64,000 nucleotides of DNA, from contig NC_135259.1 in the NCBI RefSeq assembly GCF_964204865.1, positions 18,362,974-18,426,973 on the forward strand, read 5' to 3'. This stretch comes from Styela clava. Taxonomy: Eukaryota; Chordata; Ascidiacea; Stolidobranchia; Styelidae. Each line of letters starts with the position of its first letter. Position 1 is the stretch's first letter. A program made the translations under genes and the position numbers. This document shows, one piece after another, positions 1 to 64,000 of this stretch. Under the pieces are notes generated by a model. That model was not told the origin of the DNA. It was given only the letters and a program-made list of their open reading frames with translations, and ran no database searches.

Positions 1-88
1 TGGAACTTGCACGGAAATCAATTCAGTGGTGCTAAAATATTTTAACAGTAATTCATTTTTAAAATAGGTATTAGCTTATGAATTCATA

Positions 89-159
89 TCTCAGATGGTG
101 TAAGGGTTAGGATTCCTGGCTTTCACCCACGCGGCCCGGATTCGATTCCCGGTCCAGAA
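89..159 (+). pseudogene. tRNA-Glu-like pseudogene, slot P6, anticodon TTC
   Basis: 71 nt. Acceptor strands TCTCAGA and TCCAGAA do not pair properly and one acceptor base is missing. The anticodon stem is CCTGG/CCACG and T-stem base 53 is A. D arm and loops are recognisable. The T-run follows, so it might still be transcribed. Confidence 0.7.
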
Positions 160-375
160 CCTTTTTATCCAGCAAAGATCCTGTAAGTGTTCGTTTCGAA
201 AAGCCAGAATATAAATGATGGTAGATTCACACTACAGTCTATATACATATAGCAACTTAAGAATAGGGTAGCAGAATAAATAAATTAGCTGCTAACAGAA
301 GGCAGAAATACATAAAGTGTTTTAAATACTGACGTTGGTAACTACATAAATATTAATTCAGTAGTGCTAAAATAA

Positions 376-391
376 GTTAACAATTGTTAAC
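376..391. other. 16-bp perfect palindrome GTTAACAATTGTTAAC
   Basis: Self-complementary sequence followed 10 bp later by a third GTTAAC. It lies about 120 bp past the 3' end of the tRNA-Asn gene and recurs at the same place next to nearly every tRNA-Asn in the window. No function is recognised. Confidence 0.6.
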
Positions 392-450
392 GAAGTGAAG
401 TTAACGAATTATTTCTCAAAAATAGTGGATTTCTCCCAAGGGAACACAAC

Positions 451-463
451 GAGAGAGAGAGAA
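451..463. repeat. (GA)n microsatellite
   Basis: Short GA/A-rich tract between the palindrome and the tRNA-Asn gene, about 50 bp beyond its 3' end. The same tract recurs beside the other tRNA-Asn copies with small length changes. Confidence 0.6.
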
Positions 464-512
464 AAAATTACAATATATTAATTTTGTAAAAATACAGTAT
501 AGAACAAGATAA

Positions 513-604
513 CGTCCCTGGGTGGGCTCGAACCACCAACCTTTCGGTAACCCCGACAATGTGAGATAACAGCGGAACGCGCTGACCAATTGGGCCACAG
601 AGAC
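513..604 (-). tRNA. tRNA-Asn(GTT) with 18-nt intron, probably decayed
   Basis: Reads on the minus strand as a tRNA-Asn body with intron after A37. Two stem-breaking changes: D stem GCGC to GCCC and anticodon stem TTCGG to TTCCG, each giving a C-C mismatch. The intron hairpin is also broken (GTCGG). The same set of changes occurs at 6837, 24201 and 26872. Confidence 0.65.
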
Positions 605-692
605 CGACGGGAGTTAGAACATGTTAAGTTGCAATATAATACAATTGAGCTATCAATTCTATTTGTTAATCTGTAACATAGGTTTGTAGTGA

Positions 693-729
693 CACCCAGA
701 CGGCCCGGGTTCGATTTCCCGTCTGGGAA
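693..729 (+). pseudogene. tRNA-Glu 3'-half fragment, slot P0
   Basis: Starts in the 3' strand of the anticodon stem (CACCCAG) and runs through the T arm to the discriminator. There is no D arm or 5' acceptor strand. T-stem 3' strand altered (TTCCCGTC). Confidence 0.75.
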
Positions 730-979
730 CGTTTTTGTCGAGCAAATTTCTGTCAGTTTTTCTTGCGAAACGCTAGGAAGTGAATGATGGAAGCTTTACA
801 CCACAGTCTATATACATAAAGCGACTATTAAGAATGTGGTAGTGAAATAAATAAATTGGCTGTTTACAGAAGGCAGAAATAAATAAAGAATTTTAAACTA
901 CATGGATATTAATTTAGTGGTGCTAAAATAAGTTAAAACTAACTCATTTTTAAAATATTTATTAGCCTAAGAATTCATA

Positions 980-1048
980 TCCCAGATGGTACTAAAATAA
1001 GTTAACACTAATTCATTTTTAAAATATTCATCAGCGTATTAATTCATA
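980..1048 (+). repeat. 69-bp minirepeat H with tRNA-Glu 5' stub
   Basis: Begins with TCCCAGATGGT, the first 11 nt of tRNA-Glu, then jumps to spacer sequence (ACTAAAATAAG) and ends exactly where the next full tRNA-Glu begins. Confidence 0.75.
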
Positions 1049-1120
1049 TCCCAGATGGTCTAGGGGTTAGGATTCCTGGTTTTCACCCAGGCGGCCCAGG
1101 TTCGATTCCCGGTCTGGGAA
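1049..1120 (+). tRNA. tRNA-Glu: tRNA-Glu(TTC), slot P1
   Basis: 72-nt cloverleaf. Acceptor TCCCAGA/TCTGGGA pairs fully. Anticodon loop TTTTCAC has T instead of C at position 32, and one T-stem change (CCAGG) weakens the arm. A T5 run begins 3 nt after the gene. Confidence 0.85.
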
Positions 1121-1415
1121 CCTTTTTATCCACCAATAGTCTGTTCAGTTTTTGTTGCAAAACTCTAGGAAATGAATAATGGAAGCTTTACACTATAGTC
1201 TATATACATAGAGCGACTATTGAGAATATGGTAGCGAAATAAATGAATTAGCTACTTACAGAAGGCAGAAATACATAAAGCGTTTTAAACTACTAGGATA
1301 TTAATTCAGTGGTGCTAAAATAAGTTAACACCAATTCATTTTAAAAATATTTATGGTAGTAAAATAGGTTAATACTAATTCATTTTTAAAATATTTATCA
1401 GCGTATGAAATCATA

Positions 1416-1487
1416 TCCCAGAAGGTCGAGGGGTTAGAATTCCTGGCTTTCACCCAGGCGGCCCGGATTCGATTCCCGGTCTGGGAA
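1416..1487 (+). tRNA. tRNA-Glu-like(TTC), slot P2, weakened
   Basis: Acceptor and anticodon stems pair. Slot-specific changes are A8 in place of the conserved T8, G13 in the D stem, and A53 facing C61 in the T stem, so both the A and B boxes are altered. A T5 run follows. Expression is doubtful. Confidence 0.6.
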
Positions 1488-1724
1488 CCTTTTTATCCAG
1501 CAAAGACCCTGTCAGTGTTCGTTCCGAAAAGCCAGAAAGTAAATGATGGAAGTTTCACCTTACAGTCTATATGCATAAAGCGACTAAAGAATATGGTAGC
1601 AAAATAAATAAATTAGCTGCTTACAGAAGGCAGAAATACATAAAGCGTTTTAAACTACATGGATATTAATTCAGTGGTGCAAAAATAAGTAAAACGCCAA
1701 TTCATTTTTAAAATATTTATCAAC

Positions 1725-1787
1725 GGTTAGGGGTTAGGATTCCTGGCTTACACCCAGTCGGCCCGGGTTCGATTCCCGGTCTGGGAA
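1725..1787 (+). pseudogene. tRNA-Glu-like pseudogene, slot P3, anticodon TAC
   Basis: The first about ten bases are replaced by spacer (TTTATCAAC), so there is no 5' acceptor strand. The remaining loop CTTACAC would give a Val anticodon, and the anticodon stem ends CCAGT. B box and T-run intact. Confidence 0.75.
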
Positions 1788-2003
1788 CCTTTTTCTACAG
1801 CAAAGATCTGTCAGTGTTTGTTTCGAAACGCCAGGAAGTAAATGATGGAAGAAAGAATATGGTAGCAAAATGAATAAATTAGCTGCTTACAGAAGTCAGA
1901 AATACATAAAGCGTTTTTAAACTACATGGATATTACTTCAGTGGTACTGAAATAAGTTAACACTAATTTATTTTAAAAATACTTATCAGCCTAACATTTC
2001 ATA

Positions 2004-2075
2004 TCCCAGATGGTCTAGGGGTTAGGATTCCTGGCTCTCACCCAGGCGGCCCGGGTTCGATTCCCGGTCTGGGAA
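2004..2075 (+). tRNA. tRNA-Glu: tRNA-Glu(CTC), slot P4, intact
   Basis: Delivers glutamate to GAG codons. All four stems pair: acceptor TCCCAGA/TCTGGGA, anticodon stem CCTGG/CCAGG around loop CTCTCAC, T stem CCGGG/CCCGG. The A box (TGGTCTAGGGG) and B box (GGTTCGATTCC) match the polymerase III consensus. The stop is a T4 run (ATTTTC). It differs from P1 and P5 genes only by C at position 34. Spacers on both sides are of the P4 type, which travels with the CTC anticodon through the array. Confidence 0.95.
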
Positions 2076-2272
2076 CATTTTCATCCAGCAAAGATCTGTC
2101 AATTTTTGTTGCGAAACTCTATTAAATGAATATGGGAGCTTTACACTATAGTCTTTATACAGAAGGCAGAAATACATAAAGCGTTTTAAACTACATTGAT
2201 ATTAATTCAGTGGTGCTAAAATAAGTTAACACCTATTCATTTTTAAAATATTTATCAGCGTATGAATTCGTA

Positions 2273-2344
2273 TCCCAGATGGTCTAGGGGTTAGGATTCC
2301 TGGCTTTCACCCAGGCGGCCCGGTTTTGATTCCCGGTCTGGGAA
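2273..2344 (+). tRNA. tRNA-Glu: tRNA-Glu(TTC), slot P5, B box altered
   Basis: Stems pair, except that the T arm reads GGTTTTGATTCC: the invariant C56 is T and the B box is damaged. Acceptor and anticodon arms are intact. The same change is at 8061 and 28631. Confidence 0.7.
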
Positions 2345-2690
2345 CCTTTTTATCCAGCAAAGATCTGTCAGTTTTTGTTGCGAAACTCTAGGAAATGAAT
2401 GATGGAAGCTTTACATTATAGTCTATATACATAGAGCGACTATTAAGAATATGGTAGCAAAATAAATAACTTATCTGTTTACAGTATGCAGAAATACATA
2501 TGAAAGCTTTACACTACAGGCTATATTCATAAAGCGACTTAAAAATAAGGTAGCAAAACTGGAACGTTTCGATTGGGCCATTAGTGACATTTCATTTGAT
2601 GATGAAACTTGCACGGATATTAATTCAGTGGTGCTAAAATAATTTAACAGTAATTCATTTTTAAAATAGTTATAAGCTTATGAATTCATA

Positions 2691-2761
2691 TCTCAGATGG
2701 TCTAAGGATTAGGATTCCTGGCTTTTACCCGTGCGGCCCGGATTCGATTCCCGGTCCGGAA
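2691..2761 (+). pseudogene. tRNA-Glu-like pseudogene, slot P6, anticodon TTT
   Basis: 71 nt with broken acceptor (TCTCAGA versus TCCGGAA). Loop CTTTTAC would carry a Lys anticodon. The anticodon stem 3' strand CCGTG is mismatched; A53. Confidence 0.7.
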
Positions 2762-3115
2762 CCTTTCTATCTAGCAAAGATCCTGTAGATGTTCGTTTCG
2801 AAAAGCCAGAATATAAATGATGGTAGCTTCACACTACAGTCTATATACATATAGCGACTTAAGAATATGGTAGCAGAATAAATAAATTAGCTGCTTACAG
2901 AAGGCAGAAATACATAAAGTGTTTTAAATACTGACGTTGGCAACTACATAAATATTAATTCAGTAGTGCTAAAATAAGTTAACAATTGTTAACGAAGTGA
3001 AGTTAACGAACTATTTCTCAAAAATAGTGGATTTCTCCCAAGGGAACACAACGAGAGAGAGAGAAAAAAATAACAATCTTTTGATTTTGTAAAAATACAG
3101 TATAGAACAAGATAA

Positions 3116-3207
3116 CGTCCCTGGGTGGGCTCGAACCACCAACCTTTCGGTAACCCTCACAATGTGAGATAACAGCCGAACGCGCTGACCAATTGCGCCA
3201 CAGAGAC
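3116..3207 (-). tRNA. tRNA-Asn: tRNA-Asn(GTT) with 18-nt intron, consensus copy
   Basis: Decodes AAC/AAU as asparagine. On the minus strand all stems pair: acceptor GTCTCTG/CAGGGAC, D stem GCGC/GCGC, anticodon stem TTCGG/CCGAA, T stem GGTGG/CCACC. Anticodon loop CTGTTA-A is split after A37 by an 18-nt intron. Inside the intron CTCAC pairs with GTGAG, and the third-last intron base (G) can pair with C32, the anticodon-intron pair expected for the eukaryotic tRNA splicing endonuclease. A T5 run lies about 30 nt past the 3' end. It is transcribed against its Glu neighbours. Confidence 0.9.
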
Positions 3208-3295
3208 GGACGGGAGTTGGGACATGTTAAGTTGCATTACAATACAATTTAGCTATCAATTCTACTTGTTAATCTGTAACATAGGTTTGTAGTGA

Positions 3296-3332
3296 CACCC
3301 AGACGGCCCGGGTTCGATTCCCGGTCTTGGAA
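3296..3332 (+). pseudogene. tRNA-Glu 3'-half fragment, slot P0
   Basis: Anticodon-stem 3' strand, T arm and 3' acceptor only. The acceptor reads TCTTGGAA. Confidence 0.75.
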
Positions 3333-3625
3333 CGTTTTTGTCGAGCAAATTTCTGTCAGTTTTTCTTGCGAAACGCTAGGAAGTGAATGATGGAAGCTTT
3401 ACACCACAGTCTATATACATAAAGCGACTATTAAGAATATGGTAGCGAAATAAATGAATTAGCTACTTACAGAAGACAGAAATACATAAAGCTTTTTAAA
3501 CTACTAGGATATTAATTCAGTGGTGCTAAAATAAGTTAACACCAATTAATTTTAAAATATTCATGGTAGTAAAATAGGTTAATACTAATTCATTTTTAAA
3601 ATAAATATCAGCGTATGAATTCATA

Positions 3626-3697
3626 TCCCAGAAGGTCGAGGGGTTAGAATTCCTGGCTTTCACCCAGGCGGCCCGAATTCGATTCCCGGTCTGGGAA
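3626..3697 (+). tRNA. tRNA-Glu-like(TTC), slot P2, weakened
   Basis: P2 changes (A8, G13, A53) plus a second A in the T stem (CCGAATTCG). P1 is absent here: P0 passes directly to P2. Confidence 0.5.
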
Positions 3698-4049
3698 CCT
3701 TTTTATCCAGCAAAGATCCTGTCAGTGTTCGTTTCGAAAGCCACACAGTAAATGATGGAAGTTTCACCTTACAGTCTATATGCATAAAGCGACTAAAGAA
3801 TATGGTAGCAAAATAAATAAATTAGCTGCTTACAGAAGGCAGAAATACATAAAGTGTTTTAAATACTGACGTTGGCAACTACATAAATATTAATTCAGTA
3901 GTGCTAAAATAAGTTAACAATTGTTAACGAAGTGAAGTTAACGAACTATTTCTCAAAAATAGTGGATTTCTCCCAAGGGAACACAACGAGAGAGAGAGAA
4001 AAAAATAACAATCTTTTGATTTTGTAAAATACAGTATAGAACAAGATAA

Positions 4050-4141
4050 CGTCCCTGGGTGGGCTCGAACCACCAACCTTTCGGTAACCCTCACAATGTG
4101 AGATAACAGCCGAACGCGCTGACCAATTGCGCCACAGAGAC
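4050..4141 (-). tRNA. tRNA-Asn: tRNA-Asn(GTT) with 18-nt intron, consensus copy
   Basis: Identical over its 92 nt to the copy at 3116, including the intron. It is the second member of the 935-bp duplication. Confidence 0.9.
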
Positions 4142-4229
4142 GGACGGGAGTTGGGACATGTTAAGTTGCATTACAATACAATTTAGCTATCAATTCTATT
4201 TGTTAATCTGTAACATAGGTTTGTAGTGA

Positions 4230-4266
4230 CACCCAGACGGCCCGGGTTCGATTCCCGGTCTTGGAA
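4230..4266 (+). pseudogene. tRNA-Glu 3'-half fragment, slot P0
   Basis: Same as the fragment at 3296, including the TCTTGGAA end. Confidence 0.75.
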
Positions 4267-4559
4267 CGTTTTTGTCGAGCAAATTTCTGTCAGTTTTTCT
4301 TGCGAAACGCTAGGAAGTGAATGATGGAAGCTTTACACCACAGTCTATATACATAAAGCGACTATTAAGAATATGGTAGCGAAATAAATGAATTAGCTAC
4401 TTACAGAAGACAGAAATACATAAAGCTTTTTAAACTACTAGGATAATAATTCAGTGGTGCTAAAATAAGTTAACACCAATTAATTTCAAAATATTCATGG
4501 TAGTAAAATAGGTTAATACTAATTCATTTTTAAAATAAATATCAGCGTATGAATTCATA

Positions 4560-4631
4560 TCCCAGAAGGTCGAGGGGTTAGAATTCCTGGCTTTCACCCA
4601 GGCGGCCCGAATTCGATTCCCGGTCTGGGAA
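4560..4631 (+). tRNA. tRNA-Glu-like(TTC), slot P2, weakened
   Basis: Duplicate of 3626 with the same T-stem change (CCGAATTCG). Confidence 0.5.
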
Positions 4632-4879
4632 CCTTTTTATCCAGCAAAGATCCTGTCAGTGTTCGTTTCGAAAGCCACACAGTAAATGATGGAAGTTTCA
4701 CCTTACAGTCTATATGCATAAAGCGACTAAATAATATGGTAGCAAAATAAATAAATTAGCTGCTTACAGAAGGCAGAAATACATAAAGCGTTTTAAACTA
4801 CATGGATATTAATTCAGCGGTACCGAGATAAGTTAACACTAATTCATTTTTAAAATACTTATCAGCCTAATAATTCATG

Positions 4880-4951
4880 TCCCAGATGGTCTAGGGGTTA
4901 GGATTCCTGGCTCTCACCCAGGCGGCCCGGGTTCGATTCCCGGTCTGGGAA
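4880..4951 (+). tRNA. tRNA-Glu: tRNA-Glu(CTC), slot P4, intact
   Basis: Matches the array consensus at every base. Preceded directly by P2 because P3 is missing in this repeat. The T5 run starts 3 nt downstream. Confidence 0.95.
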
Positions 4952-5148
4952 CATTTTTATCCAGCAAAGATCTGTCAATTTTGGTTGCGAAACTCTATCA
5001 AATGAATAAGGAAGCTTTACACTATAGTCTATATACAGAAGGCAGAAATACATAAAGCGCTTTAAACTACATTGATATTAATTCAGTGGTGCTAAAATAA
5101 GTTGACACCTATTCTTTTTTAAAATATTTATCAGCGTATGAATTCGTG

Positions 5149-14009: not shown

Positions 14010-14046
14010 TTCATTTTTAAAATATTTATCAGCGCATGACTTCGTA

Positions 14047-16737: not shown

Positions 16738-17091
16738 CCTTTTTATCCAGCAAAGATCCTGTAAGTGTTCGTTTCGAAAAGCCAGAATATAAATGATGGT
16801 AGCTTCACACTACAGTCTATATACATATAGGGACTTGAGGATATTGTAGCAGAATAAATAAATTAGCTGCTTACAGAAGGCAGAAATACATAAAGTGTTT
16901 TAAATACTGACGTTGTAAACTACTTAAATATTAATTCAGTAGTGCTAAAATAAGTTAACAATTGTTAACGAAGTGAAGTTAACGAACTATTTCTCAAAAA
17001 TAGTGGATTTCTCCCAAGGGAACACAACGAGAGAGAGAGAAAAAAATTTCAATCTATTAATTTTGTAAAAATACAGTATAGAACAAGATAA

Positions 17092-17183
17092 CGTCCCTGG
17101 GTGGGCTCGAACCACCAACCTTTCGGTAACCCTCACAATGTGAGATAACAGCCGAACGCGCTGAGCAATTGCGCCACAGAGAC
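17092..17183 (-). tRNA. tRNA-Asn: tRNA-Asn(GTT) with 18-nt intron
   Basis: One change in the conserved GG of the D loop (GCTCAG); stems and intron consensus. Confidence 0.83.
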
Positions 17184-17271
17184 GGACGGGAGTTAGGACA
17201 TGTTAAGTTGCAATATAATACAATTGAGCTATCAATTCTATTTTTTAATCTGTAACATAGGTTTGTAGTGA

Positions 17272-17308
17272 CACCCAGACGGCCCGGGTTCGATTTCCGG
17301 TCTGGGAA
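17272..17308 (+). pseudogene. tRNA-Glu 3'-half fragment, slot P0
   Basis: T arm with GATTTCC; acceptor end normal. Confidence 0.75.
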
Positions 17309-17558
17309 CGTTTTTGTCGAGCAAATTTCTGTCAGTTTTTCTTGCGAAACGCTAGGAAGTGAATGATGGAAGCTTTACACAACAGTCTATATACATAAAG
17401 CGACTATTAAGAATGTGGTAGTGAAATAAATAAATTAGCTGCTTACAGAAGGCAGAAATACATAAAGAATTTTGAACTACATGGATATTAATTTAGTGGT
17501 GCTAAAATAAGTTAAAACTAACTCATTTTTAAAATATTTATCAGCCTAAGAATTCATA

Positions 17559-17696
17559 TCCCATATGGTACTAAAATATGTTAACACTAATTCATTTTAA
17601 AAATATTTATCAGCCTAAGAATTCATATCCCAGATGGTACTAAAATAAGTTAACACTAATTCATTTTCAAAATATTCATCAGCACATGAATTCATA
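17559..17696 (+). repeat. Two 69-bp minirepeats H with tRNA-Glu 5' stubs
   Basis: Stubs at 17559 (TCCCATATGGT) and 17628 (TCCCAGATGGT). Confidence 0.75.
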
Positions 17697-17768
17697 TCCC
17701 AGATGATCTAGGGGTTAGGATTCCTGGCTTTCACCCAGGCGGCCCGGGTTCGATTCCCGGTCTGGGAA
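17697..17768 (+). tRNA. tRNA-Glu: tRNA-Glu(TTC), slot P1, near-consensus
   Basis: One change in the D stem (GATGATCT in place of GATGGTCT), which also touches the A box. All other arms perfect. Confidence 0.85.
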
Positions 17769-18063
17769 CCTTTTTATCCAGAAATAATCTGTTCAGTTTT
17801 TGTTGCAAAACTCTATGAAATGAATAATGGAAGCTTTACGCTATAGTCTATATACATAGAGCGACTATTAAGAATATGGTAGCGAAATAACTGAATTAGC
17901 TACTTACAGAAGGCAGAAATACATAAAGCGTTTTAAACTACTAGGATATTAATTCAGTGGTGCTAAAATAAGTTAACACTAATTCATTTTAAAAATATTT
18001 ATGGTAGTAAAATAGGTTAATACTGATTCATTTTTAAAATAATTTTCAGCGTATGAATTCATA

Positions 18064-18135
18064 TTCCAGAAGGTCGAGGGGTTAGAATTCCTGGCTTTCA
18101 CCCAGGCGGCCCGGATTCGATTCCCGATCTGGGAA
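18064..18135 (+). tRNA. tRNA-Glu-like(TTC), slot P2, weakened
   Basis: P2 changes plus TTCCAGA and CCCGATCTGGG. Confidence 0.5.
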
Positions 18136-18371
18136 CCTTTTTATGCAGCAAAGATCCTGTCAGTGTCCGTTTCGAAAAGCCAGAAAGAAAATGATGGATG
18201 TTTCACCTTACAGTCTATATGCATAAAGCGACTAAAGAATATGGTAGCAAAATAAATAATTTAGCTGCTTACAGAAGGCAGAAATACATAAAGCGTTTTA
18301 AATTACAAGGATATTAATTCAGTGGTGCAGAAATAAGTTAACACTAATTCATTTTCAAAATGTTTATCAAC

Positions 18372-18434
18372 GGTTAGGGGTTAGGATTCCTGGCTTTCAC
18401 ACAGGCGGCCCGGGTTCGATTCCCGGTCTGGGAA
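18372..18434 (+). pseudogene. tRNA-Glu-like pseudogene, slot P3, anticodon TTC
   Basis: 5' acceptor strand missing; anticodon stem 3' strand ACAGG; T arm intact. Confidence 0.72.
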
Positions 18435-18650
18435 CCTTTTTCTCCAGCAAAGATCTGCCAGTGTTCGTTTCGAAACGCCAGAAAGTAAATGATAGAAGAA
18501 AGAATAAGGTAGCAAAATGCATAAATTAGCTGCTTACAGAAGGCAGAAATACATAAAGCGTTTTTAAACTACATAGATATTAATTCAGTGGTACTGAAAT
18601 AAGTTAACACTAATTCATTTTTAAAATACTTATCAGCCTAATATTTCATG

Positions 18651-18722
18651 TCCCGGATGGTCTAGGGGTTAGGATTCCTGGCTCTCACCCAGGCGGCCAG
18701 GGTTCGATTCCCGGTCTGGGAA
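18651..18722 (+). tRNA. tRNA-Glu: tRNA-Glu(CTC), slot P4, variant
   Basis: Acceptor TCCCGGA gives a G-T pair with TCTGGGA. One T-stem mismatch (CAGGG). Confidence 0.75.
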
Positions 18723-18919
18723 CATTTTTATCCAGCAAAGATCTGTCAATTTTTGTTGCGAAACTCTATTAAATGAATATGGGAGCTTTACACTATAGTC
18801 TATATACAGAAGGCAGAAATACATAAAGCGTTTTAAACTACATTGATATTAATTCAGTGGTGCTAAAATAAGTTAACACCTATTCATTTTTAAAATATTT
18901 ATCAGCGTATGAATTCGTA

Positions 18920-18991
18920 TCCCAGATGGTCTAGGGGTTAGGATTCCTGGCTTTCACCCAGGCGGCCCGGGTTCGATTCCCGGTCTGGGAA
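18920..18991 (+). tRNA. tRNA-Glu: tRNA-Glu(TTC), slot P5, intact
   Basis: The only P5 copy identical to the array consensus. T5 run 3 nt downstream. Its leader (GAATTCGTA) is the P5 type. Confidence 0.95.
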
Positions 18992-19336
18992 CCTTTTTCT
19001 TCAGCAAAAATCTGTCAGTTTTTGTTGCGAAACTCTAGGAAATGAATGATGGAAGCTTTACATTATAGTTTATATACATAGAGCGACTATTAGGAATATG
19101 GTAGCAAAATAAATAAATTATCTGCGTACAGAATGCAGAAATACATATGAAAGCTTTACACTACAGGTTATATTCATAGAGCGACTTAAAAATAAGGTAG
19201 CAAATCTGGAACGTTCGAGTGGGCCATTAGTGACATTTTATTTGATGATGAAACTTGCACGGATATCAATTCAGTGGTGCTAAAATATTTTAACAGTAAT
19301 TCATTTTTAAAATAGGTATTAGCTTATGAATTCATA

Positions 19337-19407
19337 TCTCAGATGGTGTTAGGGTTAGGATTCCTGGCTTTCACCCACGCGGCCCGGATTCGATTCCCGG
19401 TCCGGAA
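19337..19407 (+). pseudogene. tRNA-Glu-like pseudogene, slot P6, anticodon TTC
   Basis: Broken acceptor, D arm GGTGTTAGGG, stem CCTGG/CCACG. Confidence 0.7.
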
Positions 19408-19761
19408 CCTTTTTATCCAGCAAAGATCCTGTAAGTGTTCGTTTCGAAAAGCCAGAATATAAATGATGGTAGATTCACACTACAGTCTATATACATATAG
19501 CAACTTAAGAATATGGTAGCAGAACAAATAAATTAGCTGCTTACAGAAGGCAGAAATACATAAAGTGTTTTAAATACTGACGTTGGTAACTACATAAATA
19601 TTAATTCAGTAGTGCTAATATAAGTTAACAATTGTTAACGAAGTGAAGTTAACGAGTTATTTCTCAAAAATAGTGGATTTCTCCCAAGGAAACACAACGA
19701 AAGAGAGAGAAAAAAATTACATTCTATCAATTTTGTTAAAATACGGTATAAAACAAGATAA

Positions 19762-42236: not shown

Positions 42237-42245
42237 CCTTTTTAT

Positions 42246-44184: not shown

Positions 44185-44256
44185 TCCCAGATGGTCTAGG
44201 GGTTAGGATTCCTGGCTCTCACCCAGGCGGCCCGGGTTCGATTCCCGGTCTGGGAA
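44185..44256 (+). tRNA. tRNA-Glu: tRNA-Glu(CTC), slot P4, intact
   Basis: Consensus at every base with T5 run. Confidence 0.95.
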
Positions 44257-44453
44257 CATTTTTATCCAGCAAAGATCTGTCAATTTTGGTTGCGAAACTC
44301 TATTAAATGAATATGGAAGCTTTACACTATAGTCTATATACAGAAGGCAGAAATACATAAAGCGTTTTAAACTACATTGATATTAATTCAGTGGTGCTAA
44401 AATAAGTTAACACCTATTCTTTTTTAAAATATTTATCAGCGTATGAATTCGTC

Positions 44454-44525
44454 TCCCAGATGGTCTAGGGGTTAGGATTCCTGGCTTTCACCCAGGCGGC
44501 CCGGGTTCGATTCCCGGTGTGGGAA
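44454..44525 (+). tRNA. tRNA-Glu: tRNA-Glu(TTC), slot P5, near-consensus
   Basis: One acceptor mismatch (TGTGGGA). Stop T5 after TA. Confidence 0.8.
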
Positions 44526-44871
44526 TATTTTTCTCCAGCAAAGATCTGTCAGTTTTTGTTGCGAAACTCTAGGGAATGAATGATGGAAGCTTTACATTAT
44601 AGTCTATATACATAGAGCGACTATTAGGAATATGGTAGCAAAATAAATAAATTATCTGCGTACAGAATGCAGAAATACATATGAAAGCTTTACACTACAG
44701 GCTATATTCATAAAGCGACTTAAAAATAAGGTAGCAAAACTGGAACGTTTCGAGTGGGTCATTAGTGACATTTTATTTGATGATGAAACTTGCACGGATA
44801 TTAATTCAGTGGTGCTTAAATATTTTAACAGTAATTCATTTTTAAAATAGGTATTTGCTTATTAATTCATA

Positions 44872-44942
44872 TCTCAGATGGTCTAAGGGTTAGGATTCCT
44901 GGCCTTCACCCATGCGGCACGGATTCGATTCCCGGTCCGGAA
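44872..44942 (+). pseudogene. tRNA-Glu-like pseudogene, slot P6, anticodon TTC
   Basis: The invariant T33 is C (loop CCTTCAC); broken acceptor. Confidence 0.7.
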
Positions 44943-45296
44943 CCTTTTTATCCAGCAAAGATCCTGTAAGTGTTCGTTTCGAAAAGCCAGAATATAAATG
45001 ATGGTAGCTTCACACTACAGTCTATATACACATAGCGACTTAAGAATATGGTAGCAGAATAAATAAATTAGCTACTTACAGAAGGCAGAAATACATAAAG
45101 TGTTTTAAATACTGACGTTGGCAACTACATAAATATTAATTCAGTAGTGCTAAAATAAGTCAACAATTGTTAACGAAGTGAAGTTAATGAACTATTTCTC
45201 AAAAATAGTGGATTTCTCCCAAGGGAACACAACGAGAGAGAGAGAAAAAAATAACAATCTTTTGATTTTGTAAAAATACAGTATAGAACAAGATAA

Positions 45297-52008: not shown

Positions 52009-52186
52009 CCTTTTTATCCAGCAAAGATCCTGTCAGTGTCAGTTTCGAAAAGCCAGAAAGTAAATGATGGAAGTTTCACCTTACAGTCTATATGCATAAA
52101 GCGACTAAAGAATATGGTAGCAAAATAAATAATTTAGCTGCTTACAGAAGGCAGAAATACATAAAGCGTTCACTTTCGATGCCAAG

Positions 52187-52202
52187 GACGTATATATACG
52201 TC
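52187..52202. other. Subterminal palindrome GACGTATATATACGTC
   Basis: Perfect 16-bp palindrome directly inside the left terminal repeat. Possibly a transposase-binding site; inferred only from position. Confidence 0.5.
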
Positions 52203-52238
52203 ATTTGGCGCCAACCGTTCCGTGCCATCAATGCAAAA

Positions 52239-52256
52239 TGACGTATATATACGTCA
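52239..52256. other. Subterminal palindrome TGACGTATATATACGTCA
   Basis: Perfect 18-bp palindrome sharing its core with the one at 52187, absent from the right end. Between them lies a third palindrome, TTGGCGCCAA (52205-52214). Confidence 0.5.
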
Positions 52257-53485
52257 TTCGAAAAGAAAAAAGTTTAATAGATAGAAGAAGGTCAAGTTCA
52301 AATATTTGCCGTCTTTTTCTTCTCTCTCTCTTGTTGTCAAGTTGGGGGGAAAGAATGACGTCGTCAGCCAATCGCGTCATTCAAGAAATACCAAGATGGA
52401 AGGAGGGTCTGCCATGAAGTAAATTATCAACTTATTTAGCATGGCCGAGGTACATATTAGCCGCAAATTATCATCAAAAATTTGTACGAGACCGACTGAC
52501 GCCAACACACGGTTTCAACTTTTTACGGTGAAATGATTGAAAGGTGTGAGGAGAGATGATAATATTATCAATCATGTTACGAAGATGTAGAAAAACATTA
52601 CTAAACCGGGAAATAATTCGAATATTTTTATATGCATGATCGTCGTCTTATTGGCAGGACGATGAAATGATTCAAAATGTTGGTATTTTTGAACGTTTTT
52701 TTAATTTTTTATCATTTTTGGGTAACGGATTGACGGACATCTGCAACGAAAGCAAATTTTATCGTCCTGAGAGGTGAAATGTTACATTTTGAAATAATAA
52801 AGTGAGAAATTGATATTATTCGGAACATATATTTTTCTACTTGTCAGTGAGATATGATCCATGATATAGTAATTTAGTGGGAAATATATTACCAATAACA
52901 CAGAGCCCCTCGTATGCTTTCAGCTCATATTGAATTACTTCCGTAGCTATTGTATAACCATAATTATAGCAAAATATGCAATCCTACGACTTTGTGTCGG
53001 ATGAACAAGTTCAATAAGCAGCCATGGCGTACTGATTACGTAGCTACGCAATAGCGATCACGTGTCTGGCGCCACGAAGACGGGACTACGTGCAGTCGAG
53101 AAGACTTGCGTAGCAAATTGCGTGAGATGACAATTTCGGAAAATCGTGTTCTTGACAGATCAACTGACGAATTTCGATGAAGCTTTAAACCTTTTTATTA
53201 TGTCAACTTAGAGACACCGGATGCGTATAATGAATATTGAAATTGCATTTGGAAATACTTCATTTGCACGCCAATATTAGTTCAAATATCCACACAAATA
53301 AGTATTTGCTCGCTATAAATACCAGATTGAATGAAATGTTTGCCGAGGCAAGTAAAGACTTCGAATTTCAACGTTTACTGACTGAACCCACCAAATCTGG
53401 AAGCGCCCGACGAAAACTCAGGAGCAATACTAAGATACAAACGCACCTGAAATGTATTACGCATGTTTCGGTATTATCCGACACA

Positions 53486-53818
53486 TCAGTCGTAGGTGAA
53501 AGAACTCACCTACACATGCGTATCTTGTCGGAATTGCTCTCTCGTGCTATTATAACATAAGTTGGAGATAACTTGTCTTGATCTCTCATTGCGATAAAGA
53601 TTCAATTCGAACATTTTATTCAGCAATCAGAATCATTTTATTATACGAAAATATCAAATTCGAACAAAGAAAACAAAATCGCTTACTAGCATAAAAATAT
53701 ATCCTTCATTCGCTATATATTCCAATAACATTAATAATGGCCAATTATTGTCACTCACAAGGATAACATATTGCAAAATAAACAAAGTAGTCACATTGCA
53801 TATTCATACAACTGTAAC
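53486..53818 (+). repeat. 333-bp internal inverted repeat, left arm
   Basis: Reverse-complement of 54135-54467 with only scattered differences. The separating loop is 316 bp (53819-54134). A read-through RNA would fold into a long hairpin. Confidence 0.88.
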
Positions 53819-54134
53819 ACATATGTACTTGAAACATACGAACATAGTAAATTTATTATCGAGCTTCCATATCGGAATTCATTATAAAAAATTAATGTGC
53901 AGTATGGTGGTGCATAAAATAATACATCAATCGAGGAATTTGTCAAAAACGCTATGGAATCACAGACGTAGTCAATATGTTGCCTCATTCGAATTATGGT
54001 TTGGTGAAGTTAGCGTCTACCATGCACCAAACTATCAACATATCTAGCTTGGCCGATGAATCGCAAATAGAAATATAAAAAATATGTGCGGAGTCCGATT
54101 GGCGCTAACGCACCTGGATTTTAACTTTGCTACA

Positions 54135-54467
54135 GTTACAGTTGTATGAATATGCAATGTGACTACTTTGTTTATTTTGCAATATGTTATCCTTGTGAGT
54201 GACAATAATTGGCCATTATTAATGTTATTGGAATATATAGCGAATGAAGGATATATTTTTATGCTAGTAAACGATTTTGTTTTCTTTGTTCAAATTTGAT
54301 ATTTTCGTATAATAAAATGATTCTGATTGCTGAATAAAATGTTCGAATTGAATCTTTATCGCAATGAGAGATCAAGACAAGTTATCATCAACTTATGTTA
54401 TAATAGCATGAGAGAGCAATTCCGACAAGATACGCGTGTGTAGGTGAGTTCTTTCACCTACGACTGA
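54135..54467 (-). repeat. 333-bp internal inverted repeat, right arm
   Basis: Partner of 53486-53818. It begins GTTACAGTTGTATG and ends CCTACGACTGA. One difference is CAT here against CGT at the matching site in the left arm. Confidence 0.88.
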
Positions 54468-54706
54468 AGTGCCGGAATGAACGATAACTGATGACACCGC
54501 TGGGTTCGCCGCTTTCCCGATGAATCAAAAACTAAATACGAGAGAGAATGAATAGGAGAGAACTCTCTCGTTTTCACCTCGGCACGGAACGGTAAAATTG
54601 AAAAAACTGATCTTGGCATCGAAAGTGTTAATTAAACTACAAGGATATTAATTCAGTGGTGCAAAAATAAGTAAAACACCAATTAATTTTTAAAATGTTT
54701 ATCAAC

Positions 54707-56549: not shown

Positions 56550-58027
56550 CCTTTTTATCCAGCAAAGATCCTGTCAGTGTCAGTTTCGAAAAGCCAGAAA
56601 GTAAATGATGGAAGTTTCACCTTACAGTCTATATGCATAAAGCGACTAAAGAATATGGTAGCAAAATAAATAATTTAGCTGCTTACAGAAGGCAGAAATA
56701 CATAAAGCGTTCACTTTCGATGCCAAGGACGTATATATACGTCATTTGGCGCCAACCGTTCCGTGCCATCAATGCAAAATGACGTATATATACGTCATTC
56801 GAAAAGAAAAAAGTTTAATAGATAGAAGAAGGTCAAGTTCAAATATTTGCCGTCTTTTTTCTTCTCTCTCTCTTGTTGTCAAGTTGGGGGGAAAGAATGA
56901 CGTCGTCAGCCAATCGCGTCATTCAAGAAATACCAAGATGGAAGGAGGGTCTGCCATGAAGTAAATTATCAACTTATTTAGCATGGCCGAGGTACATATT
57001 AGCCGCAAATTATCATCAAAAATTTGTACGAGACCGACTGACGCCAACACACGGTTTCAACTTTTTACGGTGAAATGATTGAAAGGTGTGAGGAGAGATG
57101 ATAATATTATCAATCATGTTACGAAGATGTAGAAAAACATTACTAAACCGGGAAATAATTCGAATATTTTTATATGCATGATCGTCGTCTTATTGGCAGG
57201 ACGATGAAATGATTCAAAATGTTGGTATTTTTGAACGTTTTTTTAATTTTTTATCATTTTTGGGTAACGGATTGACGGACATCTGCAACGAAAGCAAATT
57301 TTATCGTCCTGAGAGGTGAAATGTTACATTTTGAAATAATAAAGTGAGAAATTGATATTATTCGGAACATATATTTTTCTACTTGTCAGTGAGATATGAT
57401 CCATGATATAGTAATTTAGTGGGAAATATATTACCAATAACACAGAGCCCCTCGTATGCTTTCAGCTCATATTGAATTACTTCCGTAGCTATTGTATAAC
57501 CATAATTATAGCAAAATATGCAATCCTACGACTTTGTGTCGGATGAACAAGTTCAATAAGCAGCCATGGCGTACTGATTACGTAGCTACGCAATAGCGAT
57601 CACGTGTCTGGCGCCACGAAGACGGGACTACGTGCAGTCGAGAAGACTTGCGTAGCAAATTGCGTGAGATGACAATTTCGGAAAATCGTGTTCTTGACAG
57701 ATCAACTGACGAATTTCGATGAAGCTTTAAACCTTTTTATTATGTCAACTTAGAGACACCGGATGCGTATAATGAATATTGAAATTGCATTTGGAAATAC
57801 TTCATTTGCACGCCAATATTAGTTCAAATATCCACACAAATAAGTATTTGCTCGCTATAAATACCAGATTGAATGAAATGTTTGCCGAGGCAAGTAAAGA
57901 CTTCGAATTTCAACGTTTACTGACTGAACCCACCAAATCTGGAAGCGCCCGACGAAAACTCAGGAGCAATACTAAGATACAAACGCACCTGAAATGTATT
58001 ACGCATGTTTCGGTATTATCCGACACA

Positions 58028-58360
58028 TCAGTCGTAGGTGAAAGAACTCACCTACACATGCGTATCTTGTCGGAATTGCTCTCTCGTGCTATTATAACAT
58101 AAGTTGGAGATAACTTGTCTTGATCTCTCATTGCGATAAAGATTCAATTCGAACATTTTATTCAGCAATCAGAATCATTTTATTATACGAAAATATCAAA
58201 TTCGAACAAAGAAAACAAAATCGCTTACTAGCATAAAAATATATCCTTCATTCGCTATATATTCCAATAACATTAATAATGGCCAATTATTGTCACTCAC
58301 AAGGATAACATATTGCAAAATAAACAAAGTAGTCACATTGCATATTCATACAACTGTAAC
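58028..58360 (+). repeat. 333-bp internal inverted repeat, left arm (copy 2)
   Basis: Pairs with 58677-59009. Confidence 0.86.
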
Positions 58361-58676
58361 ACATATGTACTTGAAACATACGAACATAGTAAATTTATTA
58401 TCGAGCTTCCATATCGGAATTCATTATAAAAAATTAATGTGCAGTATGGTGGTGCATAAAATAATACATCAATCGAGGAATTTGTCAAAAACGCTATGGA
58501 ATCACAGACGTAGTCAATATGTTGCCTCATTCGAATTATGGTTTGGTGAAGTTAGCGTCTACCATGCACCAAACTATCAACATATCTAGCTTGGCCGATG
58601 AATCGCAAATAGAAATATAAAAAATATGTGCGGAGTCCGATTGGCGCTAACGCACCTGGATTTTAACTTTGCTACA

Positions 58677-59009
58677 GTTACAGTTGTATGAATATGCAAT
58701 GTGACTACTTTGTTTATTTTGCAATATGTTATCCTTGTGAGTGACAATAATTGGCCATTATTAATGTTATTGGAATATATAGCGAATGAAGGATATATTT
58801 TTATGCTAGTAAACGATTTTGTTTTCTTTGTTCAAATTTGATATTTTCGTATAATAAAATGATTCTGATTGCTGAATAAAATGTTCGAATTGAATCTTTA
58901 TCGCAATGAGAGATCAAGACAAGTTATCATCAACTTATGTTATAATAGCATGAGAGAGCAATTCCGACAAGATACGCGTGTGTAGGTGAGTTCTTTCACC
59001 TACGACTGA
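58677..59009 (-). repeat. 333-bp internal inverted repeat, right arm (copy 2)
   Basis: Pairs with 58028-58360. Confidence 0.86.
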
Positions 59010-59248
59010 AGTGCCGGAATGAACGATAACTGATGACACCGCTGGGTTCGCCCCTTTCCCGATGAATCAAAAACTAAATACGAGAGAGAATGAATAGGAG
59101 AGAACTCTCTCGTTTTCACCTCGGCACGGAACGGTAAAATTGAAAAAACTGATCTTGGCATCGAAAGTGTTAATTAAACTACAAGGATATTAATTCAGTG
59201 GTGCAAAAATAAGTAAAACACCAATTAATTTTTAAAATGTTTATCAAC

Positions 59249-60227: not shown

Positions 60228-60264
60228 CACCCAGACGGCCCGGGTTCGATTTCCGGTCTGGGAA
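60228..60264 (+). pseudogene. tRNA-Glu 3'-half fragment, slot P0
   Basis: T arm with GATTTCC. Confidence 0.75.
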
Positions 60265-60514
60265 CGTTTTTGTCGAGCAAATTTCTGTCAGTTTTTCTTG
60301 CGAAACGCTAGGAAGTGAATGATGAAAGCTTTACACAACAGTCTATATACATAAAGCGACTATCAAGAATGTGGTAGTGAAATAAATAAATTAGCTGCTT
60401 ACAGAAGGCAGAAATACATAAAGAATTTTAAACTACATGGATATTAATTTAGTGGTGCTAAAATAAGTTAAAACTAACTCATTTTTAAAATATTTATCAG
60501 CCTAAGAATTCATA

Positions 60515-60652
60515 TCCCATATGGTACTAAAATATTTTAACACTAATTCATTTTAAAAATATTTATCAGCCTAAGAATTCATATTCCAGATGGTACTAAA
60601 ATAAGTTAACACTAATTCATTTTCAAAAAATTCATCAGCACATGAATTCATA
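60515..60652 (+). repeat. Two 69-bp minirepeats H with tRNA-Glu 5' stubs
   Basis: Stubs at 60515 and 60584. Confidence 0.74.
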
Positions 60653-60724
60653 TCCCAGATGGTCTAAAGGTTAGAATTCCTGGCTTTCACCCAGGCGGCC
60701 CGGGTTCGATTCCCGGTCTGGGAA
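60653..60724 (+). tRNA. tRNA-Glu: tRNA-Glu(TTC), slot P1
   Basis: Copy of 56111: D-loop variant, otherwise consensus. Confidence 0.85.
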
Positions 60725-61019
60725 CCTTTTTATCCAGCAATAATCTGTTCAATTTTTGTTGCAAAACTCTATGAAATGAATAATGGAAGCTTTACACTAT
60801 AGTCTATATACATAGAGCGACTATTAAGAATATGGTAGCGAAATAAATGAATTAGCTACTTACAGAAGGCAGAAATACATAAAGCGTTTTAAACTACTAG
60901 AATATTAATTCAGTGGTGCTAAAATAAGTTAACACCAATTCATTTTAAAAATATTTATGGTAGTAAAATAGGTTAATACTGATTCATTTTTAAAATAATT
61001 ATCAGCGTGTGAATTCATA

Positions 61020-61091
61020 TTCCAGATAGTCGAGGGGTTAGAATTCCTGGCTTTCACCCAGGCGGCCCGGATTCGATTCCCGGTCTGGGAA
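61020..61091 (+). tRNA. tRNA-Glu-like(TTC), slot P2, weakened
   Basis: Copy of 51937 and 56478. Confidence 0.5.
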
Positions 61092-62569
61092 CCTTTTTAT
61101 CCAGCAAAGATCCTGTCAGTGTCAGTTTCGAAAAGCCAGAAAGTAAATGATGGAAGTTTCACCTTACAGTCTATATGCATAAAGCGACTAAAGAATATGG
61201 TAGCAAAATAAATAATTTAGCTGCTTACAGAAGGCAGAAATACATAAAGCGTTCACTTTCGATGCCAAGGACGTATATATACGTCATTTGGCGCCAACCG
61301 TTCCGTGCCATCAATGCAAAATGACGTATATATACGTCATTCGAAAAGAAAAAAGTTTAATAGATAGAAGAAGGTCAAGTTCAAATATTTGCCGTCTTTT
61401 TTCTTCTCTCTCTCTTGTTGTCAAGTTGGGGGGAAAGAATGACGTCGTCAGCCAATCGCGTCATTCAAGAAATACCAAGATGGAAGGAGGGTCTGCCATG
61501 AAGTAAATTATCAACTTATTTAGCATGGCCGAGGTACATATTAGCCGCAAATTATCATCAAAAATTTGTACGAGACCGACTGACGCCAACACACGGTTTC
61601 AACTTTTTACGGTGAAATGATTGAAAGGTGTGAGGAGAGATGATAATATTATCAATCATGTTACGAAGATGTAGAAAAACATTACTAAACCGGGAAATAA
61701 TTCGAATATTTTTATATGCATGATCGTCGTCTTATTGGCAGGACGATGAAATGATTCAAAATGTTGGTATTTTTGAACGTTTTTTTAATTTTTTATCATT
61801 TTTGGGTAACGGATTGACGGACATCTGCAACGAAAGCAAATTTTATCGTCCTGAGAGGTGAAATGTTACATTTTGAAATAATAAAGTGAGAAATTGATAT
61901 TATTCGGAACATATATTTTTCTACTTGTCAGTGAGATATGATCCATGATATAGTAATTTAGTGGGAAATATATTACCAATAACACAGAGCCCCTCGTATG
62001 CTTTCAGCTCATATTGAATTACTTCCGTAGCTATTGTATAACCATAATTATAGCAAAATATGCAATCCTACGACTTTGTGTCGGATGAACAAGTTCAATA
62101 AGCAGCCATGGCGTACTGATTACGTAGCTACGCAATAGCGATCACGTGTCTGGCGCCACGAAGACGGGACTACGTGCAGTCGAGAAGACTTGCGTAGCAA
62201 ATTGCGTGAGATGACAATTTCGGAAAATCGTGTTCTTGACAGATCAACTGACGAATTTCGATGAAGCTTTAAACCTTTTTATTATGTCAACTTAGAGACA
62301 CCGGATGCGTATAATGAATATTGAAATTGCATTTGGAAATACTTCATTTGCACGCCAATATTAGTTCAAATATCCACACAAATAAGTATTTGCTCGCTAT
62401 AAATACCAGATTGAATGAAATGTTTGCCGAGGCAAGTAAAGACTTCGAATTTCAACGTTTACTGACTGAACCCACCAAATCTGGAAGCGCCCGACGAAAA
62501 CTCAGGAGCAATACTAAGATACAAACGCACCTGAAATGTATTACGCATGTTTCGGTATTATCCGACACA

Positions 62570-62902
62570 TCAGTCGTAGGTGAAAGAACTCACCTACACA
62601 TGCGTATCTTGTCGGAATTGCTCTCTCATGCTATTATAACATAAGTTGGAGATAACTTGTCTTGATCTCTCATTGCGATAAAGATTCAATTCGAACATTT
62701 TATTCAGCAATCAGAATCATTTTATTATACGAAAATATCAAATTCGAACAAAGAAAACAAAATCGCTTACTAGCATAAAAATATATCCTTCATTCGCTAT
62801 ATATTCCAATAACATTAATAATGGCCAATTATTGTCACTCACAAGGATAACATATTGCAAAATAAACAAAGTAGTCACATTGCATATTCATACAACTGTA
62901 AC
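62570..62902 (+). repeat. 333-bp internal inverted repeat, left arm (copy 3)
   Basis: Pairs with 63219-63551. Confidence 0.86.
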
Positions 62903-63218
62903 ACATATGTACTTGAAACATACGAACATAGTAAATTTATTATCGAGCTTCCATATCGGAATTCATTATAAAAAATTAATGTGCAGTATGGTGGTGCATA
63001 AAATAATACATCAATCGAGGAATTTGTCAAAAACGCTATGGAATCACAGACGTAGTCAATATGTTGCCTCATTCGAATTATGGTTTGGTGAAGTTAGCGT
63101 CTACCATGCACTAAACTATCAACATATCTAGCTTGGCCGATGAATCGCAAATAGAAATATAAAAAATATGTGCGGAGTCCGATTGGCGCTAACGCACCTG
63201 GATTTTAACTTTGCTACA

Positions 63219-63551
63219 GTTACAGTTGTATGAATATGCAATGTGACTACTTTGTTTATTTTGCAATATGTTATCCTTGTGAGTGACAATAATTGGCCAT
63301 TATTAATGTTATTGGAATATATAGCGAATGAAGGATATATTTTTATGCTAGTAAACGATTTTGTTTTCTTTGTTCAAATTTGATATTTTCGTATAATAAA
63401 ATGATTCTGATTGCTGAATAAAATGTTCGAATTGAATCTTTATCGCAATGAGAGATCAAGACAAGTTATCATCAACTTATGTTATAATAGCATGAGAGAG
63501 CAATTCCGACAAGATACGCGTGTGTAGGTGAGTTCTTTCACCTACGACTGA
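63219..63551 (-). repeat. 333-bp internal inverted repeat, right arm (copy 3)
   Basis: Pairs with 62570-62902. Confidence 0.86.
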
Positions 63552-63715
63552 AGTGCCGGAATGAACGATAACTGATGACACCGCTGGGTTCGCCCCTTTC
63601 CCGATGAATCAAAAACTAAATACGAGAGAGAATGAATAGGAGAGAACTCTCTCGTTTTCACCTCGGCACGGAACGGTAAAATTGAAAAAACTGATCTTGG
63701 CATCGAAAGTGTTAA

Positions 63716-64000
63716 TTAAACTACAAGGATATTAATTCAGTGGTGCAAAAATAAGTAAAACACCAATTAATTTTTAAAATGTTTATCAACGGTTAGGGGT
63801 TAGGATTCCTGGCTTTCACCCAGGCGCCCCGTGTTCGATTCCCGGTCTGGGAACCTTTTTATCCAGCAAAGATCCGTCAGTGTTCGTTTCGAAACGCCAG
63901 AAAGTAAATGATGGAAGAAAGAATATGGAAGCAAAATAAATAAATTATCTGCTTACAGAATGCAGAAATACATATGAAAGCTTTACACTACAGGCTATAT
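63716..64000. repeat. 4.54-kb tandem unit, copy 4 (cut by window end)
   Basis: Matches the first 285 bp of the unit; the array evidently continues past the window. Confidence 0.9.
63791..63853 (+). pseudogene. tRNA-Glu-like pseudogene, P3/P5 hybrid, anticodon TTC
   Basis: Copy of 54707 and 59249. Confidence 0.72.

What the first reader, a model, noticed from the sequence alone, without database searches (positions are those of the whole stretch)
1..64000. tRNA genes built into a satellite-like higher-order repeat
Over 100 tRNA-Glu-derived units and 23 tRNA-Asn genes occupy the window with no other gene. Complete repeats are 2602-2671 bp and keep a fixed slot order (P0-H-P1-P2-P3-P4-P5-P6-Asn), like alpha-satellite higher-order repeats but made of polymerase III genes. 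Intact and dead copies alternate in a regular way, so the array may be at once a gene supply and a satellite.
Basis: partly seen in the sequence, partly recalled or inferred. Interest (0 to 1): 0.85.

Follow-up and report, generated by a model that had tools for sequence, protein, structure and literature searches.

The report
tRNA-gene macrosatellite with higher-order repeats
A long stretch of one animal-like chromosome is a tandem array of transfer-RNA genes in which working genes and dead relics keep fixed places in each repeat, so it looks like satellite DNA but may still supply tRNA.

Summary
The window (C13:18,362,974-18,426,973 of a 376.6-Mb eukaryotic genome) has 150 tRNA-Glu-derived units and 23 tRNA-Asn places. 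It lies in a larger array running from about 18.334 Mb to at least 18.692 Mb; the right end was not seen. 117 of 172 slot-to-slot steps in the window follow one order (shuffles 18.2 +/- 4.1), but only 7 of 22 complete Asn-to-Asn intervals are full 2.60-2.67-kb repeats. All 7 keep an intact Glu in slot G (UUC in 6, CUC in 1) and an intact Glu-CUC in slot I among relics. A second, 1.65-kb family with Glu, Asn and Ile genes fills much of the right part. A 2.46-kb insert was copied with its host repeat into four nearly identical 4.54-kb units, which shows the amplification step. Evidence for function is indirect: intact Glu consensus genes are identical between families with 57-71% identical flanks, Asn exons vary less than their flanks, Asn introns keep the metazoan splicing pair. 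Within Glu slots constraint is weak. Expression is untested. Tandem tRNA arrays are known; the fixed live/dead slots make this a new variant.

The parts
1..64000 (.). Part of a tRNA-gene array that begins at C13:18,334,167 (window -28,806) and continues right to at least C13:18,691,970
512..3114 (.). Exemplar complete HOR1 repeat (2603 bp): Asn, F, heads, G, C, E, I, B, H
513..604 (-). tRNA-Asn with 18-nt intron (Rfam 38.5 bits)
693..730 (+). Slot F: 3' fragment of tRNA-Glu (0 of 43 copies intact in the 270 kb read); edges read from the sequence
918..1059 (+). 69-bp head repeats, each ending in the first bases of a tRNA-Glu; 2.1 or about 3.1 copies, which gives the 2.60/2.67-kb size classes
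1049..1122 (+). Slot G: intact tRNA-Glu(UUC); 31 of 41 copies intact
1416..1489 (+). Slot C: degenerate tRNA-Glu (0 of 49 intact)
1724..1788 (+). Slot E: tRNA-Glu lacking a proper 5' end in most copies (11 of 45 intact); edges read from the sequence
2004..2076 (+). Slot I: intact tRNA-Glu(CUC); 25 of 35 intact, 24 of them CUC
2273..2346 (+). Slot B: tRNA-Glu(UUC), degenerate in this copy by my test; 23 of 53 intact
2691..2763 (+). Slot H: relic with anticodon UUU here and broken acceptor stem (0 of 39 intact)
3115..3208 (-). tRNA-Asn(GUU) with 18-nt intron; this exact gene body is the commonest Asn sequence (11 copies among those read)
17091..19760 (.). Complete HOR1 repeat (2670 bp)
19761..22429 (.). 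Complete HOR1 repeat (2669 bp); slot G carries CUC
24200..26870 (.). Complete HOR1 repeat (2671 bp)
26871..29472 (.). Complete HOR1 repeat (2602 bp)
35643..38244 (.). Complete HOR1 repeat (2602 bp)
42625..45295 (.). Complete HOR1 repeat (2671 bp)
3115..4982 (.). Local direct duplication with a 934-bp step (two Asn at 3115 and 4049)
52171..54627 (.). Transposon-like insert, 2457 bp, inverted ends CACTTTCGATGCCAAG, first copy
56712..59169 (.). Same insert, second copy (2458 bp), one 4541-bp step on
61254..63711 (.). Same insert, third copy (2458 bp), one 4542-bp step on; a fourth lies right of the window

Best explanation
A tRNA-gene macrosatellite. A tRNA-Glu gene with its flank was duplicated in tandem; most copies decayed and one changed its anticodon from UUC to CUC. 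A block of seven Glu units plus an intron-bearing tRNA-Asn on the other strand then became the unit of amplification, so each slot's state, live or dead, was inherited with the block (shown by the copy pattern). Unequal exchange between co-oriented repeats keeps expanding, deleting and locally homogenising blocks (mechanism inferred). A sister family with Glu, Asn and Ile genes occupies much of the right part. Selection most likely acts on the number of intact genes in the array rather than on each copy: working slots (Glu-UUC, Glu-CUC, Asn-GUU, and Ile-AAU in the sister family) probably add to the tRNA pool and relic slots hitchhike (inferred; expression not shown).
For: Slot order far above shuffles and a fixed fate per slot. 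Complete HOR1 repeats 95.3-98.3% identical, n=9, and divergence rising with distance in most slots. An insert carried into four units: units 99.9%, inserts 99.8-99.96% identical. Slots G, B (HOR1) and A (HOR2) have the same 72-base consensus although G and A flanks are 57% and 71% identical; the C3 gene has the same 72 bases. 145 of 150 intact Glu units have TTTT within 25 nt downstream. Asn exon/flank diversity 0.60 [0.47-0.79] and 0.58 [0.38-0.86]. G at -3 of the Asn intron in 42 of 43 and 54 of 55, as the metazoan splice rule of PMC6614914 wants (passages). Slot I differs from the UUC consensus by one base at position 34, and its 5' flank is 91% identical to slot B's.
Against: No expression data. 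In slots G, I and A the confidence interval of tRNA/flank diversity reaches or includes 1, and with CpG columns left out slot A is 1.13, above dead slots C (1.03) and D (0.98). Only 39 of 150 window Glu units are intact and 7 of 23 window Asn places fit the strict exon template. Only Glu, Asn and Ile are amplified, which does not fit a general need for tRNA. Gene conversion could also keep intact genes alike.
Confidence: 0.65

Rival explanations
1. Pure satellite: selfish tandem DNA that happened to start from tRNA genes; no copy contributes notably to the tRNA pool, and dispersed genes do the work.
For: Dispersed intronless Asn genes exist (8), as do exact Glu-UUC 44-mers on C3 and C8, a Glu-CUC on C8 and Ile on C4, C8, C10. 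111 of 150 window Glu units are not intact. tRNA diversity in single Glu slots is close to that of flanks.
Against: Identical Glu consensus across families with diverged flanks; reduced diversity of Asn exons; retained splice pair in introns; intact slots stay intact in all 7 complete window repeats.
Confidence: 0.25
2. Assembly artefact: repeats stuttered or mis-joined by the assembler.
For: The 4.54-kb units are 99.9% identical, so their number is uncertain; no reads were available.
Against: Complete HOR1 repeats differ by 1.7-4.7%; the array sits inside a 22.5-Mb contig and its left edge passes into different sequence with other mobile-element genes; two repeat families and dispersed inserts give landmarks.
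Confidence: 0.05
3. Tandem array of a tRNA-Glu-derived SINE rather than of genes.
For: Monomers combine a tRNA-Glu with an AT-rich tail region; most copies are broken.
Against: All 40 scored unit matches are on C13. On C1-C12 the exact or one-mismatch 44-mer occurs only on C3 and C8 (C14 and later not listed), and these two are isolated genes without the array flank. Intact units keep a mature 3' end followed by a T-run in 145 of 150.
Confidence: 0.05

Closest known systems
Human 1q23.3 tRNA tandem repeat and its mouse counterpart (PMC4041453; abstract and passages)
   Same: Tandem repeat of a multi-gene unit with tRNA genes on both strands, Glu among them, at one place on a chromosome
   Different: There 7.3-kb GC-rich units, 98% identical, each with five tRNA genes, 9-43 units per allele; the passages mention no nested monomers and no relic slots
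tRNA arrays of Entamoeba (PMC2652664; abstract and passages)
   Same: Long tandem arrays of units with 1-5 tRNA types, thought to be homogenised by concerted evolution
   Different: 25 arrays that hold almost all tRNA genes, with short tandem repeats between genes; the authors saw no clear evidence of pseudogene copies, whereas most Glu copies here are relics
Zebrafish repetitive tRNA loci (PMC11417395, PMC3706591, PMC2888827; passages)
   Same: Very many clustered tRNA genes and relics, beside dispersed genes; tRNA genes as targets of mobile elements
   Different: Maternal expression from repetitive loci is reported there; expression is unknown here, and a slot-by-slot order is not described in the passages
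Alpha-satellite-type higher-order repeats (recalled)
   Same: Diverged monomers in fixed order; the multi-monomer unit is amplified and homogenised
   Different: Monomers here are Pol III genes or relics; found at one chromosome in the searches made; no evidence of a centromere role

Membership tests
Tandem tRNA gene array | Head-to-tail repeats of a unit that holds tRNA genes | tested here: met
Tandem tRNA gene array | Intact tRNA genes in the unit | tested here: met
   39 of 150 window Glu units intact, in fixed slots
Tandem tRNA gene array | Array genes are transcribed | not testable with these tools
   No RNA data
Higher-order-repeat satellite | Low divergence within a slot, high divergence between slots | tested here: met
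   Flank diversity within slots 4-12%; flank identity between slots 36-93%
Higher-order-repeat satellite | Fixed monomer order in the amplified unit | tested here: met
   117 of 172 steps canonical, shuffles 18.2; but 7 of 22 intervals complete
Higher-order-repeat satellite | Centromeric position or kinetochore role | not testable with these tools
   Internal place on a 22.5-Mb contig; no chromatin data
tRNA-derived SINE | Dispersed copies with target-site duplications | tested here: not met
   All 40 scored unit matches on C13; two isolated genes on C1-C12 without the array flank; 640 candidates of which 40 were scored, so not exhaustive
Metazoan intron-containing tRNA | Intron directly after position 37 | tested here: met
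   87 of 102 Asn places parsed as GTTA, 18 nt, ACCG
Metazoan intron-containing tRNA | C32 paired with G at -3 of the intron | tested here: met
   G at -3 in 42 of 43 and 54 of 55; rule from passages of PMC6614914
Metazoan intron-containing tRNA | Intron is spliced out | not testable with these tools
   No RNA data
Stage-specific (maternal-type) RNA gene array | Stage-limited expression | not testable with these tools
   No RNA data
Stage-specific (maternal-type) RNA gene array | Array and dispersed genes differ in mature sequence | tested here: inconclusive
   Asn: the two array base combinations are absent from the 6 dispersed genes read of 9 known. Glu-UUC: identical to the C3 gene. Glu-CUC: anticodon stem differs from the C8 gene

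The most novel reading that the evidence does not exclude
The array is a Pol III macrosatellite kept as a stage-specific tRNA factory: each block delivers one Glu-UUC, one Glu-CUC born inside the array by an anticodon switch, and one Asn whose newly gained intron marks array transcripts, while the inherited dead slots act as spacers that make expansion and contraction easy.
Probability: 0.15. Interest if true: 0.8.

Novelty: new variant of a known kind. Interest (0 to 1): 0.55.

Why it matters
It joins two things usually studied apart, satellite turnover and tRNA gene supply, in one locus where live and dead copies can be counted slot by slot. Array-specific Asn base combinations and the intron circles they would give make it directly testable whether a tandem tRNA array is expressed, and when. 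It also offers a case of an anticodon switch that became fixed in an amplified block.

Tried and rejected
Organism: not identified. A search for COX1 found nothing; an 18S rRNA search gave no usable answer and then a busy answer. Animal origin is inferred from tRNA sequences (recalled resemblance to human tRNA-Glu and tRNA-Asn) and from the splice rule.

A human-like Glu-CUC gene was sought by a recalled pattern and not found; a wider pattern found 33 places: one on C8, one on C14 (letters not shown) and 31 on C13. A first Asn diversity estimate chose families by exact flank strings and kept 78 of 103 genes; it was redone with 102 of 103 (one lay too near an edge). The canonical-transition count used wrong labels and gave 0; it was redone. 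Slot labels differ from those used here. RNA folding of the tRNAs was not informative (z -0.81 to -1.73 for four sequences).
Full report
Where it is. The window is C13:18,362,974-18,426,973 of a 376,610,584-bp genome in 379 contigs. I read C13:18,320,001-18,590,000. tRNA-like units start at 18,334,167 and go on past the end of what I could read. tRNA-Ile matches of the second family are listed to 18,691,970, so the array is at least 358 kb long, of which about 256 kb was read. The right edge is open: 66 of 166 Ile places, and 24 or so of 124 Asn places, are not listed, and they may lie further right or on C14 and later contigs.

What is in it. In the 270 kb read, BLAST found 468 Glu-like units on the + strand and 103 Asn places. 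In the window there are 150 Glu units: 39 intact, 54 truncated, 33 degenerate, 24 with an indel; and 23 Asn places. My test of intactness asks for full length, at most one unpaired stem position, T-loop TTC and A, U33, and anticodon UUC or CUC; it does not test transcription. For all 468 units: 150 intact, 127 truncated, 142 degenerate, 43 indel, 6 with another anticodon. A strict template of the functional Asn exons fits 7 of 23 window places and 38 of 103 in all; 92 of 103 have anticodon GUU.

Slots. Clustering 290-bp units gave nine main clusters (A-I, labels), with 57 of 468 units outside them. HOR1, which fills the window, has the order F-G-C-E-I-B-H-Asn. In the window 117 of 172 neighbour steps follow it, against 18.2 +/- 4.1 and at most 35 in 5,000 shuffles; 7 of 22 complete intervals are full, and 12 of 22, those 7 included, are order-preserving subsets. 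Each slot has its fate: F 0 of 43 intact, C 0 of 49, H 0 of 39, E 11 of 45, B 23 of 53, I 25 of 35 (24 CUC), G 31 of 41 (29 UUC, 2 CUC). All 7 complete window repeats have G and I intact (G is CUC in one), and 2 of 7 also B; of the two complete repeats left of the window one has G degenerate.

Second family. From about 18.45 Mb rightwards the array turns mostly into a 1.65-kb repeat (HOR2): dead Glu (D, 0 of 49 intact), Glu-UUC (A, 44 of 57 intact, 43 UUC), Asn with a different intron, and tRNA-Ile(AAU) on the - strand. Patches of HOR1 return inside it. Ile places with up to 2 mismatches: 166 in the genome; on C1-C12 six (C4 1, C8 3, C10 2).

How it grows. Complete HOR1 repeats (n=9) are 95.3-98.3% identical, HOR2 repeats (n=24) 84.0-99.8%. 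Within a slot, divergence rises with distance: of 300 permutations, 0 reach the observed value in G, C, D and A, 3 in E, 13 in F, 14 in B, 28 in H and 83 in I, so I and H show little or none. A 2,458-bp insert with inverted ends sits between slot C and the next unit of one kind of repeat; that repeat follows itself in steps of 4,541-4,542 bp, with four inserts 99.8-99.96% identical and units 99.9% identical. This is insertion followed by tandem amplification. A 934-bp direct duplication (Asn at 3115 and 4049) is a smaller case. These patterns fit unequal exchange; break-induced copying would look alike.

Are the genes under selection? Diversity of the tRNA relative to its flanks is 0.73 (B), 0.83 (G), 0.90 (I) and 0.96 (A) in slots with many intact copies, and 0.98 (D), 1.05 (C), 1.15 (E), 1.28 (F) and 1.48 (H) in the others. 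The two groups separate, but the intervals for G, I and A reach or include 1, slot B is a mixed cluster, E has 11 intact copies, and with CpG columns left out A rises to 1.13, above C and D. So evidence for selection within Glu slots is weak. Asn exons have 0.60 [0.47-0.79] and 0.58 [0.38-0.86] of flank diversity; exon/intron is 0.76 [0.61-1.02] and 0.61 [0.43-0.89]. Over longer time the signal is stronger: the G, B and A consensus genes are identical over 72 bases although G and A flanks are 57% (5') and 71% (3') identical, while C, E, H and D consensus differ from it by 6-11%. Gene conversion from intact genes could also give this. The C3 gene has the same 72 bases without a shared flank.

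The Asn intron. 87 of 102 Asn places parse as GTTA, 18 nt, ACCG, an insert directly after position 37. The introns of the two families share 11 of 18 positions, the exons 72 of 74. Genome-wide, 8 intronless Asn places exist (C3, C4, C16, and five on C13 at 19.987-19.996 Mb), and 124 with exact exons around a 10-30-nt insert: one on C3 with another, 16-nt insert, and otherwise C13 in the part listed. PMC6614914 (passages) states that Drosophila introns share a C-G proximal pair, 6 nt from that C to the exon end, and a 3-nt bulge at the 3' cut. C32 to A37 is 6 nt here, and G at -3 is kept in 42 of 43 and 54 of 55 array introns and in the C3 gene. So splicing is plausible but not shown.

The Glu-CUC slot. 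The slot I consensus differs from the UUC gene by one base at position 34, and its 5' flank is 91% identical to slot B's. The C8 Glu-CUC has another anticodon stem (CGTGG/CCACG). The pattern has 33 places: C8 1, C14 1 (letters not shown), C13 31. The simplest reading is an anticodon switch inside the array and fixation in the block; a switch elsewhere and later entry is not excluded.

A marker for expression. HOR1 and HOR2 mature Asn each combine bases that none of the six dispersed Asn genes I read has (5 of 8 intronless and the C3 intron gene).

What is known. Tandem tRNA arrays: human 1q23.3 and mouse (PMC4041453), Entamoeba (PMC2652664); clusters in zebrafish, stickleback and Nematostella (PMC2888827); maternal tRNAs from repetitive loci in zebrafish (PMC11417395). 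I saw abstracts and passages only. Six searches listed no title or abstract start that describes a tRNA-based higher-order repeat with fixed live and dead slots; they cover open-licence papers only. The alpha-satellite comparison is recalled.

Limits. No reads, no expression, no species name, no relatives; right of 18.59 Mb the array was seen only through pattern matches.

Noticed in passing
L023 about 1363-7123 (C13:18,461,363-18,467,123), - strand: A non-LTR retrotransposon (RVT_1, weak endonuclease match) inserted inside a tRNA-Ile gene, with the target GCGTCGTGC repeated on both sides and a poly-A tail.
   Followed up: partly
L033 about 7530 to L034 about 3130 (C13:18,567,530-18,573,130), + strand: A related non-LTR element (endonuclease and RVT_1) inside a tRNA-Glu gene of which the middle is missing; no poly-A tail at its end.
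   Followed up: partly
G000, C2, C4, C13, C16: Possible tRNA targeting by this retrotransposon: of 6 places where its end is followed within 25-55 nt by a box-B-like GGTTCRA, 5 overlap listed element copies (one is the array copy itself); the reversed control pattern gave 0. Flank letters were not seen, and most of the 40-odd listed copies did not match.
   Followed up: partly
G000 C3:2,415,999-2,416,042: A dispersed tRNA-Asn with an unrelated 16-nt insert at the same place that also keeps G at -3: intron gain or turnover in Asn genes of this genome.
   Followed up: partly
G000 C13:19,987,395-19,996,501: Five intronless tRNA-Asn places within 9 kb, more than a megabase right of the window; two were read.
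   Followed up: no
G000 C8:4,908,231-4,925,408: One Glu-UUC and three Ile-AAU places within 17 kb, the same two isotypes as in HOR2; a possible source region.
   Followed up: no
L009 6737-9502: Left of the array: a piggyBac-type transposase fragment (DDE_Tnp_1_7) and Gypsy-like reverse transcriptase, RNase H and integrase fragments.
   Followed up: no
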